Below, one piece after another: positions 17,160 through 48,209 of a DNA stretch of 64,000 nt. The notes beneath the pieces are model-generated. The model did no database searches, was not told the origin of the DNA, and saw only the letters and a program-made list of their open reading frames with translations. The position numbers and the translations under genes are program-made. Every line of letters starts with the position of its first letter. Positions within the stretch are counted from its first letter, which is position 1. Source of the DNA: Bacillus bingmayongensis (GTDB lineage Bacteria > Bacillota > Bacilli > Bacillales > Bacillaceae_G); assembly GCF_000299035.1 (NCBI RefSeq), contig NZ_AKCS01000005.1, forward strand, positions 248,001 to 312,000, in the 5' to 3' direction.

Positions 17160-17202
17160 GTTAAAAACATTGTAGATTCTTTTCAATAATAAAGATTTAA
17201 AT

Positions 17203-17245
17203 AAAAAAATAAAGAGAGTATATTTATAACTCTCTTTATTTTTTT
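17203..17245. repeat. Left copy of the 43-bp duplicated target (terminator palindrome)
   Basis: 16-bp arms AAAAAAATAAAGAGAG / CTCTCTTTATTTTTTT around an 11-base loop. The identical 43 bases occur at 18806-18848 on the other side of the IS. It is taken as the target-site duplication. Confidence 0.85.
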
Positions 17246-18805
17246 CAGAGTGTTGGGAAACCCTTTAGGGTTTCCGACACTCTGGAATTTTTTTAATATT
17301 TTAGTGAATGAAAACAATAAAAAGTGATAGAAGCTAGAAAAATAGCCCTTCACCTGACCCTTTTTGGTCAGGTGAAGGGCTATTTTTTTCATGTTTTGGC
17401 AAGCTGCGGTGAGATAAGCCTGCATTTGGACAGACTTCAGCCCCCGGAACCGAGCGTATCGATAGCCATGTAGCTCTTTGGCATCCGCGAAGCTTCGTTC
17501 AATAGTAGAACAGCGTACCTTATATAGTTTTTTACCTGTACTTGTTAATTTGTTTTTTCGTGCAATATCTTTATACTCTTCCCAAATGTGATGTGTAATG
17601 ACCTTCTGTTTTTGTTTCTCTGAGAAACATTTGTTACGCAACGGACAAACTGCGCAATCTGTTGGATTAGACTTATATTGGCGATATCCTTCTCGATCGG
17701 TTGTCGCATATTCTAAAATACATCCCATTGGACAGGCAAATACATCTGTTTCTTTTTCGTATTTAAATTGGCTTTTTGGTACGTCTTTATTTCTTTTTCC
17801 AAACCGGCGATACCCCATCACCATAAATATATTCTGTTCCGATAATTTTTTGCAGATATAACCTGTAAAGTAGCCAGCATCAAGTGCCACTGCTTCTATT
17901 TGAAATCCAAACTTATCAACTTGTGCTTGAAGTCGCTCTAAATACGGCTCGGAATCCGCTACATTTCCAGCCGTAATAAATGTATCTGTAATCACATTAT
18001 ATTTCGCATCCGTTGTACGATGATCTAAGAAATGAAAACCGTTCGGTTTTCCATCTCGCATTAAAAAGCCACTATCTGGATCTGTTGTACTTACACGTGT
18101 TTTTTTGATTGGGGTATCACGTTCCTTTCTTGGTTTTAATTCTTTTTTCCGTGTTTTTCCCTATCTTTTATAACTGCCGCTTCTAATTCTTCCATATATA
18201 ATTTAGGGCGCTCTTTTTTTACTTTGTGTACAAATTTATTTTTATTTGCGTTTGCTTTCACATGAGTTGAATCTGTCATCAATGCGCGCCCACCCACCAT
18301 ACGATGTTCCATCGCTTGACGTACAATTTCATTAAAGATTTCTTCAAAAATATTTGTATGAATAAAACGAGTACGACGGTTCCAACTGATTGTGGAGTGG
18401 TCTGGTACTGAATCCGATAAAGAAAACCCTAAAAACCAACGATACGCAATATTAGTTTTAATCTCTTTTTCTAATTGACGTTCAGATCGAATACCATAAA
18501 AATAGCCAATAAACATCATTTTGAATAAGACGATAGGATGAATAGAAGGGCGACCATTGTTTTCACAATAATAAGGACGTAACTTTTCCTCGATAAAATC
18601 AAAATTAATAGTCGCTTCAATTGCACGAAGAAAATGATCTTGTGGAACTAACTCTTCAACAGAAACTGATACACGCTCATCGCGATGATTTTTCAATGCA
18701 CCCATCATAATAAATCGCTCCTTTTCCTCTTTTTATCATTGTTGACAGATAAAAAAGGGTTCAGACACAAAAATAGGCTGTGGAGCAAACTTTCTCCACA
18801 GCCTG
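17246..18805 (-). mobile_element. IS1182-family insertion sequence, 1560 bp
   Basis: Bounded exactly by the two 43-bp direct repeats. The outermost 16 bases, read inward, are CAGAGTGTTGGGAAAC and CAGGCTGTGGAGAAAG, matching at 11 of 16 positions. Each end also contains its own palindrome: 17246-17284 (imperfect, TTTA loop) and 18775-18804 (11-bp perfect arms AGGCTGTGGAG / CTCCACAGCCT). Carries one transposase gene. ISfinder describes variable, sometimes long, duplications for this family. Confidence 0.88.
17341..17384. terminator. 19-bp perfect hairpin inside the IS
   Basis: Stem AATAGCCCTTCACCTGACC with its exact complement around a 6-base loop, T-rich on both sides. It lies within the 3' end of the transposase reading frame, so transcription of the transposase may stop here, and transcripts entering from outside would also be blocked. 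Confidence 0.75.
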
Positions 18806-34811: not shown

Positions 34812-34862
34812 AAAAAAACGGACTCAATGCCCTATATATATAAAGGGGTGAGTCCGTTTTTT
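34812..34862 (-). terminator. Terminator of catA
   Basis: 13-bp stem AAAAACGGACTCA / TGAGTCCGTTTTT plus an inner CCC/GGG stem around an AT loop, with A- and T-runs; 31 bases beyond the stop codon. Confidence 0.88.
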
Positions 34863-34893: not shown

Positions 34894-35544
34894 TTATCCA
34901 AGCCACTCATGGAAATTATTAGATAGCTCTTGTAACTCTACTATAAATTTACTTGCATGATATCCATCACAAACAGCATGATGCACTTGTAACGAAATAG
35001 GTAACAATATTTTATCTCCCTGATTAAAATATCTTCCCCCTGTAATGATAGGTAATAAAAAGTTGTCATCATTATTTATATTTAGGTTAAATCCTGTAAA
35101 ACTAGCCCAAGGAATACTAGATATAGGAAAAGAATTTTGGGGTATATTTTCTTTTGTGAATAAACCATGAATATTAGCGTATTGTTTTATATCATCTTGA
35201 TAGTTTTTATAAAAAACACTGAATTCGTTAGAGAACTCAGTCCATATACTCGAAAAAGATTTGTTATCATTATGAAATATTGTATAACTTGGTATCATTT
35301 TATCCCAGTATCCTAAAACACCTTCATCATTAAAACAAGTCCGAAATTCTTTATGGGCATTGACTGTTCTACTGACCATATAAATAAAAGTAGGATATAA
35401 TTTAATTCCTTTATTGTGAAATTGTTCCAATAATTCCGTGATGTCTATATTTGCTGTCATGCTAAATGTACATTTTAGTTTTAAATAATGCTCAAAATAC
35501 TGGTTTCTATTCCAATTTTCTCTATTAATTACATGAAACCTCAT
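34894..35544 (-). CDS. catA: Type A chloramphenicol O-acetyltransferase
   Basis: Inactivates chloramphenicol by acetyl transfer from acetyl-CoA; cytosolic trimer. 216 residues, normal for the class. The active-site motif is QVHHAVCDGYHASKFI (HHxxxDG, catalytic His) near residue 190; other CatA landmarks are YPTFIYMVSRTVNAHKEFRT, GYWDKMIPSYTIFH and SIPWASFTGFNLNI. The ribosome site AGGAGGCTAATAAA is sequestered in a stem-loop preceded by a short leader ORF, so expression is expected to be induced by chloramphenicol through translational attenuation. Single-gene unit with its own terminator; chromosomal context of the window is otherwise host-like. Confidence 0.95.
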   Translation of the reverse strand: MRFHVINRENWNRNQYFEHYLKLKCTFSMTANIDITELLEQFHNKGIKLYPTFIYMVSRTVNAHKEFRTCFNDEGVLGYWDKMIPSYTIFHNDNKSFSSIWTEFSNEFSVFYKNYQDDIKQYANIHGLFTKENIPQNSFPISSIPWASFTGFNLNINNDDNFLLPIITGGRYFNQGDKILLPISLQVHHAVCDGYHASKFIVELQELSNNFHEWLG

Positions 35545-35547
35545 TTT

Positions 35548-35589
35548 ATTAGCCTCCTAAAATTATGTTTTGTATTTTAGAAGGCTAAT
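35548..35589 (-). promoter_or_regulatory. Translational attenuator stem-loop hiding the catA ribosome site
   Basis: Arms ATTAGCCTTCTAAAAT (35589-35574) and ATTTTAGGAGGCTAAT (35563-35548) on the minus strand are complementary at 15 of 16 positions, with a 10-base loop. The second arm contains the catA Shine-Dalgarno sequence AGGAGG; the first overlaps codons 6-9 and the stop of the leader ORF. Confidence 0.85.
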
Positions 35590-35606
35590 TCTCTTGTTTT
35601 CACCAA
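35577..35606 (-). CDS. cat leader peptide (9 aa)
   Basis: TTG-GTG-AAA-ACA-AGA-GAA-TTA-GCC-TTC-TAA, behind GAGGTG six bases upstream: MVKTRELAF (or VKTRELAF from GTG at 35603). The leader of cat-86 begins MVKTD, and there a ribosome stalled by chloramphenicol near codon 6 opens the stem. Here the stem starts at the third base of codon 6 (GAA), so a ribosome paused at the same place would melt it. The match is by sequence and geometry, not experiment. Confidence 0.75.
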   Translation of the reverse strand: MVKTRELAF

Positions 35607-35736
35607 ATCATTCACCTCTTCATAAAGATTTGTTAAAAATAAAATCTGTAAGTATTAGAGCCATAATCTCTATTACCTACTATACGATATACGTTAACCT
35701 TAAACAAAAAATACACTGTTTCAATAAGCATTTTTA

Positions 35737-35985
35737 TCACGAGTTCATATTAAATGTATATACTTTATATTCACCATTATTGGATGAATTTCTTAAAATA
35801 TTTCTGTCTTCTGCTAAAGGGATGGTTACTCTTCCCGTACCACATGCTATATCTAAAATCCATTCATTTTGGATTCCAAGTTTTTTGGACCAAGATAATA
35901 AAAGCGGAAAATCTGACAAACTTGTATTTTCTACATCATATCGTTTCGGATTTTCATATTCTGATAAATTCCACTTCGCTTGCAA
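35737..35985 (-). pseudogene. Truncated SAM-dependent methyltransferase
   Basis: 82 residues that begin like a full methyltransferase (LSEYENPKRYDVENTSLSDF, then EWILDIACGTGRVTIPLAE, motif I with the SAM-binding loop) but after residue 59 change to DRNILRNSSNNGEYKVYTFN and stop. A normal protein of this type is about 240-260 residues. The tail looks like the end of the same family, so an internal deletion is likely. TTG start with AAAGAGG upstream. Confidence 0.7.
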
Positions 35986-36965: not shown

Positions 36966-38666
36966 ATGTTTCGTAAAACAGCGGGTGAAGCACTTGTTGA
37001 TTTGCTTATCGAATGGGGCGTTGACCACATTTATGGTATGCCTGGGGATTCAATCAATTCAATTATTGAACCGCTTCGAAAAAAACAGGACAAAATTAAA
37101 TTCATTCAAGTTCGTCATGAAGAAGCAGGTGCTTTGGCGGCCGCTTCCTATGCAAAATTAACTGGTAAACTCGGCGTTTGTATGGCGATTGCTGGACCTG
37201 GGGCGATTCATTTATTAAATGGATTATATGACGCGAAACTAGACCAAGCACCGGTACTCGCAATTACAGGGCAAGTTGAATCAGATTTACTTGGAACTGG
37301 GTTTTTCCAAGAAGTAAACTTAGAAAGAATGTTTGATGATGTGGCTGTTTATAATCAACGAATTATGTCAGCTGAACAACTCCCTGCAGTTGTAAACCAA
37401 GCGATTCGTATGGCATATACAAAGAAAGGTGTATCTGTTCTTACCATACCAGATGATGTTCCGAAGTTTGAGGTGGAAGCTGGTGCACGTATAACAAGTT
37501 CTTCTTTTACATTGCCTGAACTTTTTCCGCAAGAAGAGGATCTAAAATTGGCAAAACTAGCACTAAATGAAGCGAAAAAACCTGTTATTTTAGCCGGAAA
37601 AGGAGCAAAATATGCGAAGGAATCTTTACTTGCATTTGCAGAACATATTGGTGCCCCAATCGTTTTAACACTTCCAGCAAAAGGGATTATTCCTGATGAA
37701 CATCCTCTTTGTATAGGTGGATTAGGATTAATTGGGACAAAACCGTCTTACGAAGCAATGAAGAATGCGGATACATTAATTATGGTTGGTACTTCTTATC
37801 CTTTTACTGGCTTTTTACCTGAAAAAGCCAAAACGCTTCACATTGATACGGACCCTGCGCAAATTGGGAAACGTTATGCGACAGATATTGGATTAGCTGG
37901 TGATGCAGATAAAACATTGAAATGGTTTTTAGAAAATGTAGAGAAGCATACGGATCATTCATTCCTAGAACATCATCAAGAACTGATGAAAAAATGGGAA
38001 GAGAAATTGCATAACCAAGAAGAAGATTCTTCTACTCCAATTAAACCACAAAGAGTGATGCACGCTTTGCAACGTGTCGCTCATGATGATGCAATTTTAT
38101 CAGTAGATGTTGGGAATGTCACAGTATGGGCTGCCCGCCATTTTCGGATGACGAATCAACAATTCATCATCTCTAGTTGGCTCGCAACACTTGGATGTGG
38201 CCTTCCTGGAGCAATTGCTGGGCAACTTACTTATCCAGATAAACAAGTCTTTGCAATTTGCGGTGATGGTGGATTTGGAATGACGATGAATGATTTTGTC
38301 ACCGCCGTTAAGTATAAACTACCAATTATCGTTGTTGTATTAAATAACCATAAAATCGCTATGATTAAATTCGAACAAGAAGTAATGGGAAATGTTGAAT
38401 TTGGTACAGACTTAACAAACCCTAATTTTGCAAAATATGCAGAAATATGCGGCGGAGTTGGTTACCGTGTTGAACATATCGGTGAATTGCTTCCTGCTTT
38501 TGAAAGTGCTGTTAAGCAAGATAAACCATGCATTATTGATGTAGTAGTAGATGTAAATGAAGCACCCATGCCTGCTAAAATTACATTTGGGCAAGCAGCA
38601 GGCTATACGAAACATATGTTAAAAGAGTTATTTGAAGAAGGAAAAATTGATTTACCACCTTTGTAA
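36966..38666 (+). CDS. Thiamine-diphosphate-dependent pyruvate oxidase (YdaP/PoxB-like)
   Basis: 566-residue TPP enzyme with the three-domain layout: PYR domain (about 1-170, with YGMPGDSINSIIEPLRKKQD and the catalytic Glu in VRHEEAGALAAASYAKLTG), FAD/middle domain (~190-330) and PP domain (~360-540, TPP motif AICGDGGFGMTMNDF). Converts pyruvate to acetyl phosphate or acetate with CO2 release. In B. subtilis the homologue ydaP belongs to the general stress regulon; no clear sigma-B promoter was recognised here, only a TATAAT about 30 bases before the gene. AAGGAGGATCTATT precedes ATG. Confidence 0.92.
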   Translation: MFRKTAGEALVDLLIEWGVDHIYGMPGDSINSIIEPLRKKQDKIKFIQVRHEEAGALAAASYAKLTGKLGVCMAIAGPGAIHLLNGLYDAKLDQAPVLAITGQVESDLLGTGFFQEVNLERMFDDVAVYNQRIMSAEQLPAVVNQAIRMAYTKKGVSVLTIPDDVPKFEVEAGARITSSSFTLPELFPQEEDLKLAKLALNEAKKPVILAGKGAKYAKESLLAFAEHIGAPIVLTLPAKGIIPDEHPLCIGGLGLIGTKPSYEAMKNADTLIMVGTSYPFTGFLPEKAKTLHIDTDPAQIGKRYATDIGLAGDADKTLKWFLENVEKHTDHSFLEHHQELMKKWEEKLHNQEEDSSTPIKPQRVMHALQRVAHDDAILSVDVGNVTVWAARHFRMTNQQFIISSWLATLGCGLPGAIAGQLTYPDKQVFAICGDGGFGMTMNDFVTAVKYKLPIIVVVLNNHKIAMIKFEQEVMGNVEFGTDLTNPNFAKYAEICGGVGYRVEHIGELLPAFESAVKQDKPCIIDVVVDVNEAPMPAKITFGQAAGYTKHMLKELFEEGKIDLPPL

Positions 38667-45506: not shown

Positions 45507-45663
45507 TTTATCCCGCATTAACGGGCAGTAAGACCCCTACCTCAAAATTTAGTCAAAACAAGGAAGTTAGGTGATGGATCAACTGCCCATAAAAGCCCGA
45601 TTGGTGAAGACAAATAATCAATGGGAGATGAACAAACCCCCACTGATTATAGTTTCACTTTAT
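45507..45663 (-). repeat. bcr1-like repeat, copy C, abutting the thrS stop codon
   Basis: TTTAT at 45507-45511 and 45659-45663 flank CCCGCATTAACGGGCAGTAA ... CACTGATTATAGTTTCAC, about 150 bases, close to the size reported for bcr1. On the minus strand it starts AAAGTGAAACT immediately after, and overlapping, the thrS TAA stop codon (45662-45660). Confidence 0.85.
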
Positions 45664-47585
45664 TTAGAGCATTTATTATAAACTTCCTCCTGTACACCTT
45701 CCATAAATACAGATAGTGAAACCACCTCAGATTTCTCTTCACCATATTTACGCACATTTACAGATCCATTTTCCATTTCTTTATCTCCAATAACAAGAAC
45801 GTATGGTATCTTTTGAATTTGAGCTTCTCGGATTTTATACCCTAGTTTTTCACTACGAACATCTCGTTCGACTCGAATACCAGTTTGTTTTAACTTTTCT
45901 TCAATTTCATTTGTATATTGGTCATGGACTAGAGTTGAAACCGGAATTACTTTTACTTGAACAGGAGCTAACCATGTTGGGAATGCTCCTCCAAAATGTT
46001 CAATTAGTATTCCTAAGAAACGATCAAAAGAACCTAATACAGCCCGGTGAATCACAACTGGTCTTCTTTTCTCATTTCTCTCATCAATATAATTCAAATC
46101 AAATTTCTCTGGCATTTGGAAATCAAGCTGTACTGTTCCACATTGATGGCTTCTTTGTAAAGCATCTTTAATATGAAAATCAATTTTCGGTCCGTAAAAC
46201 GCACCATCTCCTTCATTTACTCTATAATTATAATCTAATGATTTCAGCACATTTTCGAGAGACGCTTCAGCTTGATTCCATAGCTCATCATCACCCATTG
46301 AATCTTCAGGTCTTGTTGAAAGCTCAACTTCGTATTCAAAACCAAATTTTTTATAGACATAGTCAATTTGTTTTAACACTGACTTTATTTCACTTTCTAT
46401 TTGTTCAGGTGTCACAAATAGATGTGCATCATCCTGACAGAATGTACGTACTCTTAATAATCCGTTCAATGCACCACTAAATTCGTGGCGATGTACTTTA
46501 CCAAATTCACACATTCGAATTGGTAAATCACGGTATGAACGTAGTTTATTTTTAAAAATAAGCATATGTCCAGGGCAATTCATCGGTTTTAATGCAAAGC
46601 TTTTGTTGTCTACCTCTGAAAAATACATATTGTCTTTATAATGATCCCAGTGCCCTGATTCTTCCCATAGCCCTTGATTCATCATAATAGGAGTGCGCAC
46701 TTCTTGATAATCGTATTTTTGTTGTATTTCTCTTAAAAAAGCCTCTAACTCATTTCGGATGATTTGTCCTTTCGGTAAATAAAAAGGCATCCCAGGCGCT
46801 TCTTCTGAGAACATAAATAATTCAAGTTCATTTCCAAGCTTGCGATGATTTCTCTTCGCAGCCTCTTCTACAAAATGTAAATAACTTTCTAATTCTTTTT
46901 GAGAAGAAAATGCAACACCATATACACGCTGAAGTACTTGATTATTACTATCTCCGCGCCAATATGCACCAGAAACATGAGTTAATCGAAATGCTTTTAA
47001 ATAACCAGTTGACGGTAAATGCGGACCGCGGCATAAATCTACAAATTCTCCTTGTTTATAAATTGTCACAACTTCATTCTCTGGAATTGCTTCTAAAAGT
47101 TCCAGCTTTAAATGATCATTTATATCTTGAAACAATTTTTCCGCTTCATCCCTAGTGATTTCAACTCGTTCTATTTCCAAGTTTTCGTTAATAATATTTT
47201 GCATTTCATTTTCAATTTTAGGTAGGTCCTCTACAGCGATGCTACTTGGAAGATCCATATCATAATAAAATCCATTTTCAATAACAGGTCCTACACCAAG
47301 TTTTACATCGCCATATATTCTGTTTACAGCCTGTGCTAACATATGTGCAGAAGTATGTCTTGCAATTTCTACACCTTCCTCTGAATCTATAGTGATGATT
47401 TGCACTTTCGCATTTCCTTCAATGTTTCGGCGTAAATCAAAAAGCTGACCATTCACCTTTCCTGCTACTGCCTTCTTTTTTAAACTAGTACTAATTGATC
47501 CTGCAATTTCTTCTAAAGTAATTCCTTTTACAAATTCTTTTACACTACCATCTAGAAAAATAATTTCAATCATCTGTTCTCTCAT
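45660..47585 (-). CDS. thrS: Threonyl-tRNA synthetase (T-box-controlled copy)
   Basis: 641 residues; class II synthetase charging tRNA-Thr. N-terminal TGS domain (1-65), editing domain with HTSAHMLAQAVNRI and the HxxxH-C/H zinc-like site (about 65-225, including HVSGAYWRGDSNN), catalytic core with motif 2 RMCEFGKVHRHEFSGALNGL and motif 3 PVVIHRAVLGSFDRFLGILI, and the C-terminal anticodon-binding domain. Two tandem T-box leaders lie upstream, as for the starvation-inducible thrZ gene of B. subtilis (which has three), so this may be the thrZ orthologue. GGAGCGATAAAA precedes ATG. Stop codon is inside the flank of bcr1 copy C. Confidence 0.97.
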   Translation of the reverse strand: MREQMIEIIFLDGSVKEFVKGITLEEIAGSISTSLKKKAVAGKVNGQLFDLRRNIEGNAKVQIITIDSEEGVEIARHTSAHMLAQAVNRIYGDVKLGVGPVIENGFYYDMDLPSSIAVEDLPKIENEMQNIINENLEIERVEITRDEAEKLFQDINDHLKLELLEAIPENEVVTIYKQGEFVDLCRGPHLPSTGYLKAFRLTHVSGAYWRGDSNNQVLQRVYGVAFSSQKELESYLHFVEEAAKRNHRKLGNELELFMFSEEAPGMPFYLPKGQIIRNELEAFLREIQQKYDYQEVRTPIMMNQGLWEESGHWDHYKDNMYFSEVDNKSFALKPMNCPGHMLIFKNKLRSYRDLPIRMCEFGKVHRHEFSGALNGLLRVRTFCQDDAHLFVTPEQIESEIKSVLKQIDYVYKKFGFEYEVELSTRPEDSMGDDELWNQAEASLENVLKSLDYNYRVNEGDGAFYGPKIDFHIKDALQRSHQCGTVQLDFQMPEKFDLNYIDERNEKRRPVVIHRAVLGSFDRFLGILIEHFGGAFPTWLAPVQVKVIPVSTLVHDQYTNEIEEKLKQTGIRVERDVRSEKLGYKIREAQIQKIPYVLVIGDKEMENGSVNVRKYGEEKSEVVSLSVFMEGVQEEVYNKCSK

Positions 47586-47605: not shown

Positions 47606-47855
47606 ATAAAAAAGCACACTCATCCCTAATAATAGGGACGAGCGTGCTTTTACCCGTGGTTCCACCCAGATTCCCATCATACTTCATCGTACAATGGCTT
47701 CTTTTGCGGTAACGTCGCTTACACGGCACTAGATACTTTCATTTTCCCTAGTGCAGCTCTAAGGTGGTAAGTTATTTCACTGCATTAGGAAGTTCTCAGC
47801 ATTCCTTCCCTCTCTGTACAACCGTTAAAAATAACTCGTGTCCTTTTCTTCGCTT
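47606..47855 (-). ncRNA. T-box riboswitch 1 (proximal), Thr
   Basis: The T-box core GGGTGGAACCACGGGT is at 47667-47652 on the minus strand, followed by the terminator stem AGCACGCTCGTCCC / GGGATGAGTGTGCT (47651-47612) and a T-run. The 5' half carries the Stem I, with GTAAGCGACGTTACCGC and a TTACCACC segment whose ACC codon fits threonine. Uncharged tRNA-Thr is expected to stabilise the antiterminator and allow thrS transcription. Confidence 0.9.
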
Positions 47856-47872
47856 ATTATGAAATTAAAAAT

Positions 47873-48120
47873 AAAAAAGCATACTCATCCCTAATAACAG
47901 GGACGAATATGCTTGTATTCGTGGTTCCACCCAGATTCCCATCATACTTCATCGTACAATGGCTCCTTTTGCGGTAACGTCGCTTACACGGCACTAGATA
48001 CTTTTATTTTCCCCAGTGCAGCTCTAAGGTGGTAAGTTATTTCACTGCGTTAGGAAGTTCTCAGCATTTCTTCCTTCTCTGTATAACCGTTAAAAATAAC
48101 TCGTGTCCTTTTCTTTGCTT
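47873..48120 (-). ncRNA. T-box riboswitch 2 (distal), Thr
   Basis: Near-identical second copy. T-box core GGGTGGAACCACGAATA at 47932-47916, terminator AGCATATTCGTCCC / GGGATGAGTATGCT (47914-47876), Stem I start AAAGCAAAGAAAAGGACACG, and the same TTACCACC segment. The unit differs from copy 1 by a few substitutions. A TTGACA hexamer at 48183-48178 (minus) is a candidate -35; no well-spaced -10 was found. Confidence 0.9.
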
Positions 48121-48209
48121 TTATAATACATCCATTAATTGTTATTTAATATATCTTATTCATTTTATTTTTGCAAGTGTCAAAAAATATTTTTTGTTCA
48201 ATAAAAAAA

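What the first reader, a model, noticed from the sequence alone, without database searches (positions are those of the whole stretch)
35548..35606. Chromosomal catA with a leader peptide and ribosome-site-sequestering stem: translational attenuation
A 9-codon leader (MVKTRELAF) lies upstream of a 16-bp stem that pairs the catA Shine-Dalgarno with the end of the leader. The stem begins at the third base of leader codon 6, where a ribosome paused on codon 5-6 would melt it. This geometry and the MVKT start match the inducible cat-86 system known mainly from plasmids and B. pumilus. Its presence on what looks like host chromosome is worth checking.
Basis: partly seen in the sequence, partly recalled or inferred. 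Interest (0 to 1): 0.72.

Follow-up and report, generated by a model that had tools for sequence, protein, structure and literature searches.

The report
Chloramphenicol-sensing switch before resistance gene
A very short gene and an RNA hairpin in front of a chloramphenicol-resistance gene probably keep it silent until the drug stalls a ribosome there; it is a new example of a long-known switch, and comparing it with relatives shows which of its letters do not change.

Summary
On the minus strand a 9-codon leader (TTG start, MVKTRELAF, 35606-35577) overlaps a mismatch-free 16-bp hairpin (35589-35548) that covers the Shine-Dalgarno of catA (35544-34894). Best explanation: chloramphenicol-induced translational attenuation of the cat-86/pC194 kind, a known mechanism and a new member. 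Induction was not measured.

Chromosomal location is therefore ordinary. The host was not identified; nearest CatAs found are 74-81% identical.

The comparison added one thing. Leader codon 4 is Ala, Ser or Thr in 53 of 53 leaders, the residues that chloramphenicol needs in the penultimate position for a stall on codon 5; they fill only 3 of 212 places at codons 2, 3, 5 and 6. Codon 4 is always GCA, TCA or ACA: on the CatA tree its first base changed at least 11 times, its third base never, while neighbouring third bases changed 6-14 times. The peptide rule alone does not predict that fixed wobble base.

The parts
35612..35618 (-). Shine-Dalgarno of the leader, GAGGTGA, 5 nt before the TTG start
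   Evidence: read directly
35577..35606 (-). leader ORF, TTG start, MVKTRELAF plus TAA; codon 4 ACA (Thr), codon 5 AGA (Arg), codon 6 GAA (Glu)
   Evidence: start codon and frame conserved in relatives
35574..35589 (-). left arm of the stem, from the third base of leader codon 6 past the leader stop
35548..35563 (-). right arm of the stem, holding the catA Shine-Dalgarno AGGAGG at 35558-35553
34894..35544 (-). catA, type A chloramphenicol O-acetyltransferase, 216 aa
   Evidence: NF000491 309.9 bits, cut-off 270; phmmer hits to solved CAT structures
34813..34862 (-). likely terminator hairpin after catA, ending in TTTTTT on the minus strand
   Evidence: inverted repeat I3; the pattern scanner did not list it, so this is a reading of the sequence

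Best explanation
The control region of a chloramphenicol-inducible catA that works by translational attenuation. Without drug, ribosomes translate the 9-codon leader and leave; the 16-bp stem forms and hides the catA Shine-Dalgarno, so little CatA is made. With drug, a ribosome that has made MVKTR (Thr penultimate, codon 5 in the P site, Glu codon 6 in the A site) cannot form the next peptide bond and stalls; it covers the left arm, the catA ribosome site is freed, and CatA is made and inactivates the drug. Shown here: the parts, their geometry, their conservation and the restriction of codon 4 to Ala, Ser or Thr. Inferred: the stall, the melting of the stem and the induction.
For: Stem and leader beyond chance. 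Conservation with true CatA and not with CatA-like paralogues: 39 of 40 and 6 of 6 draws over the cut-off, 5 of 5 genome-contig loci, 12 of 12 plasmid catA records, against 0 of 27 and 0 of 24 under the cut-off. The anti-SD lies 22 nt after the leader start in 50 of 53, 21 in 2, 23 in 1 (48 of 52 at 22 when the start was chosen without that rule). The ten core pairs hold in 40-42 of 42 distinct arm pairs, with changes on both sides at some positions. Codon 4 is Ala, Ser or Thr in 53 of 53; no Gly at codons 5 or 6; Ala, Ser and Thr take 3 of 212 places at codons 2, 3, 5, 6. That is the published chloramphenicol rule: arrest with Ala, less so Ser or Thr, penultimate, and no Gly-tRNA in the A site (PMC8066774, passages; PMC12121999, passages). 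Leaders of the same plan precede fexA and fexB (4 of 4 plasmid records).
Against: No induction data. Arg at codon 5 with Glu at codon 6 occurs in none of the other 52 leaders. Thr is among the weaker penultimate residues (PMC8066774). A clear promoter was not found. Exceptions among CatA genes: L052 (over the cut-off) and L086 (Streptococcus phage catA) lack the leader.
Confidence: 0.9

Rival explanations
1. A relic: leader and stem are inherited but no longer switch, because Arg at codon 5, Glu at codon 6 or the TTG start spoil stalling, so catA stays low.
For: The Arg-Glu pair at codons 5 and 6 is found in the window alone among 53 leaders.
Against: Stem mismatch-free over 16 bp, both Shine-Dalgarnos present, codon 4 in the allowed set; TTG in 8 of the other 52 leaders; residues 5 and 6 vary freely in relatives, 12 and 13 changes on the tree, and Arg at codon 5 recurs in a clade of 10.
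Confidence: 0.06
2. The stem is a transcription terminator or attenuator rather than a cover for the ribosome site.
For: A strong hairpin before a gene.
Against: The right arm is followed by AAAATGAGG, not a run of T, and the terminator scan did not list it; the conserved core of the stem is exactly the Shine-Dalgarno and its complement.
Confidence: 0.02
3. The stem lowers catA translation passively and the short ORF is an accident.
For: Such short ORFs alone are common in any sequence.
Against: The ORF start, frame, codon 4 and the 22-nt distance are conserved across 53 leaders.
Confidence: 0.02

Closest known systems
pC194 catA attenuator (NC_002013, L203) and its plasmid kin
   Same: leader start 22 nt before the anti-SD, Lys-Ala at codons 3-4, stem over the catA SD; CatA family
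   Different: leader MKKADK with 6 codons in the fetched record, Ala not Thr at codon 4, Asp not Arg at codon 5
cat-86 attenuator of Bacillus pumilus (recalled, not fetched)
   Same: as recalled: leader beginning MVKTD, stall with codon 6 in the A site, stem starting at codon 6
   Different: window has Arg at codon 5 and Glu at codon 6; no direct alignment was possible
Leaders of chromosomal catA in Bacillus sp. PS06, Planococcus sp. 107-1, Neobacillus mesonae, Pseudalkalibacillus decolorationis, Paenisporosarcina sp. HGH0030 (L001-L005)
   Same: leader, geometry and stem; CatA 74-81% identical
   Different: MVKADKLAS, MVRADKLAS, MVKADKLAS, MVKTDK, MVKADD against MVKTRELAF
fexA and fexB attenuators (L206-L209)
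   Same: leaders MVKAVDLAS and MVKAVDLAF, same 22-nt distance and SD-covering stem; fexB shares the TTC codon before TAA with the window
   Different: downstream gene is an exporter, not CatA

Membership tests
CatA, type A chloramphenicol acetyltransferase | NF000491 score over the curated cut-off | tested here: met
   309.9 bits against 270
cat translational attenuator (cat-86/pC194 kind) | short translatable leader with its own SD directly upstream | tested here: met
cat translational attenuator (cat-86/pC194 kind) | stem that pairs the end of the leader with the cat SD | tested here: met
cat translational attenuator (cat-86/pC194 kind) | residue penultimate to the codon-5 stall is Ala, Ser or Thr; no Gly in the A site | tested here: met
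   Thr at codon 4, Glu at codon 6; rule from passages of PMC8066774
cat translational attenuator (cat-86/pC194 kind) | leader and stem conserved among CatA orthologues | tested here: met
   39 of 40 over the cut-off, 0 of 27 under it
cat translational attenuator (cat-86/pC194 kind) | leader begins MVKTD as in cat-86 (recalled) | tested here: not met
   MVKTR in the window; residue 5 is D in 13, V 21, R 11, E 6, T 1, S 1 of 53 leaders, so Asp does not define the kind
cat translational attenuator (cat-86/pC194 kind) | ribosome stall at leader codon 5-6 with chloramphenicol, and induction | not testable with these tools
   needs toeprinting and a reporter
B. cereus group chromosome | window lies in a B. 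cereus group genome | tested here: inconclusive
   no genome held; best match of the 36966-38666 gene among 299 class-drawn genomes 73% DNA identity; no names available for those

The most novel reading that the evidence does not exclude
The wobble base of leader codon 4 is under selection of its own. Codon 4 is GCA, TCA or ACA in 53 of 53 leaders; its first base changed at least 11 times on the CatA tree while its third base never did, although third bases of codons 2, 3, 5 and 6 changed 10, 6, 14 and 12 times. Chloramphenicol arrest on these leaders would then depend not only on the nascent peptide but on the codon or the tRNA isoacceptor read just before the stall (the NCA codons are read by U34 tRNAs, recalled), or on an mRNA base seen by the ribosome.
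Probability: 0.3. Interest if true: 0.6.

Novelty: new member of a known kind. Interest (0 to 1): 0.36.

Why it matters
By itself the locus is one more inducible catA. The comparative set turns it into a natural test of how chloramphenicol chooses its stall site: evolution has kept exactly the penultimate residues found by ribosome profiling, at one codon and almost nowhere else in the leader, and has also kept a wobble base that the peptide model does not explain. The same plan before fexA, fexB and one cfr-family gene suggests a shared architecture for phenicol-resistance switches in Bacilli.

Tried and rejected
Host identification: no genome is held; a 12-kb megablast against plasmids found nothing; the gene at 36966-38666 matched class-drawn genomes at 73% or less; the order search returned only 14 genomes, all already drawn; PDB searches with four window proteins gave no close named kin; tblastn of window ThrRS, NRPS and one 573-aa protein against plasmids gave at best 74% and 71% identity, and no match. 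Left open.

Remnant upstream: the 82-aa ORF 35737-35985 carries a methyltransferase-like start (NF041820, 23.4 bits, under its cut-off of 175) and no Pfam hit; whether catA replaced the rest was not settled.

rRNA complementarity of the leader as the reason for the fixed wobble base (an old proposal, recalled): not tested; only two neighbouring bases of the region are invariant, one of them explained by the peptide rule.

Counts against or outside the reading: L052 (over cut-off) has no leader; L086 (Streptococcus phage catA), L087 (catA1) and L088 (catA2) have none; L089 has no upstream DNA. Under the cut-off, 27 of 34 class genomes were fetched, 7 were not; of the 24 phylum loci under the cut-off several are fragments for which the gene start was not found, and L109, a catA-like gene with an in-frame stop, does have a leader-like ORF (codon 4 ACA) that the rule missed. 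The 60 catA records include one gene twice (L048/L092) and near-identical records. The tree is a quick one with 19 of 49 inner branches open, so change counts are approximate. Independence is assumed in the wobble probabilities. A paper search for MVKTD, MKKSE or a cat-86 leader gave two unrelated papers. I did not see the primary cat-86 papers; older mutational work on leader codons may already bear on the wobble base.

Full report
What is there. On the minus strand, GAGGTGA (35618-35612) precedes TTG GTG AAA ACA AGA GAA TTA GCC TTC TAA, a 9-codon ORF MVKTRELAF (35606-35577). A 16-bp stem without mismatch begins at the third base of codon 6 (35589) and ends at 35548; its right arm holds AGGAGG, 8 nt before the ATG of catA at 35544. 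The fold is far more stable than shuffles (z -4.5 on 81 nt; z -6.2 on 151 nt), and only 1 of 5000 shuffles gave even a 12-bp stem of this arrangement. The gene is a CatA over the NCBIfam cut-off (309.9 against 270 bits). An inverted repeat after catA ends in T on the minus strand (34813-34862), probably its terminator. No convincing promoter was found.

Surroundings. Genes around it include a ZIP-like transporter, a thiamine-type oxidase-like gene, ABC transporter parts, ThrRS with two T-box leaders, a glycine riboswitch before a sodium:alanine symporter and an NRPS with a thioesterase. This looks like a chromosome (inference). A transposase split over two ORFs lies 16 kb away (17183-18708); not all ORFs of the window were scanned. 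No tRNA gene was found.

Relatives. The genome-contig scan with CatA gave 5 relatives, 74-81% identical. A draw of 398 genomes of the same class gave 40 with CatA over the cut-off and 34 with weaker matches only; a draw of 398 from the phylum gave 6 over the cut-off, 5 of them genomes already seen. With one uniform rule (start codon 21-23 nt before an anti-SD, in-frame stop, GGAGG near the gene start), the leader is present in 39 of 40, 6 of 6, 5 of 5 and in 12 of 12 plasmid catA records, and absent from 27 of 27 and 24 of 24 fetched loci under the cut-off. The last set includes fragments, and one of them, L109, shows a leader-like ORF by eye. L052, a Streptococcus phage catA (L086), catA1 and catA2 lack it.

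Geometry. The anti-SD starts 22 nt after the first base of the leader in 50 of 53 leaders; with starts chosen by leader length instead, 48 of 52. Forty-nine of 53 leaders have 9 codons, 3 have 6 and 1 has 11. Ten core pairs of the stem hold in 40-42 of 42 distinct arm pairs; the outer and inner neighbours vary, with changes on both sides, for example G-C 14, A-U 13, U-A 5 at the pair just outside the core. In the window the core has one U-G pair where most have C-G.

The stall site. Passages of PMC8066774 state that chloramphenicol arrests translation when Ala, less so Ser or Thr, is penultimate in the nascent chain, and not when Gly-tRNA is in the A site; PMC12121999 (passages) says the same of Ala, Ser and Thr. 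If the ribosome stalls with codon 5 in the P site, as recalled for cat-86, codon 4 is penultimate. Codon 4 is Ala in 27, Ser in 16 and Thr in 10 of 53 leaders; Gly never appears at codon 5 or 6; Ala, Ser and Thr fill 3 of 212 places at codons 2, 3, 5 and 6. Leaders were assigned without regard to codon 4.

A further constraint. Codon 4 is GCA, TCA or ACA in all 53, and in the 6 plasmid leaders fetched afterwards, 59 of 59 in all. On a quick CatA tree the first base of codon 4 changed at least 11 times, the second and third never; third bases of codons 2, 3, 5, 6 changed 10, 6, 14, 12 times. Within the CatA genes themselves A-ending codons are about a third of the GCN, TCN and ACN codons, and 7% in one cluster that still has GCA in the leader; if clusters were independent the chance of an all-A outcome would be 10^-8.6 with 16 clusters and 10^-12 with 23. 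Clusters share ancestry, so these are too small, but inheritance alone does not explain a third base fixed beside a first base that changes. The peptide rule explains the C at position 2; it does not explain the A. Codon or isoacceptor identity, an mRNA base contact, or an RNA structure not seen here are possible; none was tested.

Same plan, other genes. A stem pattern search in the 398 class genomes hit 45 genomes; 34 of these hold an over-cut-off catA with the stem before it, and G212 a broken one. Of the rest, L143 is FexA (1043 bits, cut-off 900; leader MVKAVDLAS), L132 an MFS gene that looks FexA-like (leader MKKAIDVAS), and L142 a Cfr-family methyltransferase over three cut-offs with leader MIPVNDKAS. 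Plasmid fexA and fexB carry the leader in 4 of 4 records fetched, all with GCA at codon 4. In 52 viral stretches with the stem, no leader of the cat kind was seen by eye.

What is known. Translation attenuation of cat, cmlA and fexA is established (PMC5418344, passages; PMC8876359, passages), as is the CmlA leader arrest motif KNAD (PMC10192921, passages). Chromosomal cat in all 104 Bacillus licheniformis and paralicheniformis strains studied is reported in PMC6333372 (passages). So mechanism and location are known kinds. I saw no survey of catA leaders or of the codon-4 wobble base in the searches run; the library lacks most subscription papers, so this is weak evidence of novelty.

Verdict. 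A well-formed, probably working chloramphenicol attenuator; a new member of a known kind. The one item that deserves follow-up is the invariant third base of leader codon 4.

Noticed in passing
   Followed up: partly
   Followed up: partly
L053, L109, G212:C32: Broken or truncated catA-like genes; L109 and G212 still have the stem, and L109 a leader-like ORF, upstream.
   Followed up: no
window 35737-35985, minus strand: An 82-aa ORF that looks like the start of a methyltransferase and stops short, just upstream of the catA leader.
   Followed up: partly
window 47631-48124, minus strand: Two tandem T-box leaders before a ThrRS gene (45660-47585).
   Followed up: no
window 17183-18708, minus strand: A transposase split over two ORFs (DDE_Tnp_1_6 and DUF772 parts).
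   Followed up: no
L086:480-612 (Streptococcus phage phi-SC181): A catA next to optrA that keeps the SD arm but has lost the cat leader; an inverted repeat stands in its place.
   Followed up: no
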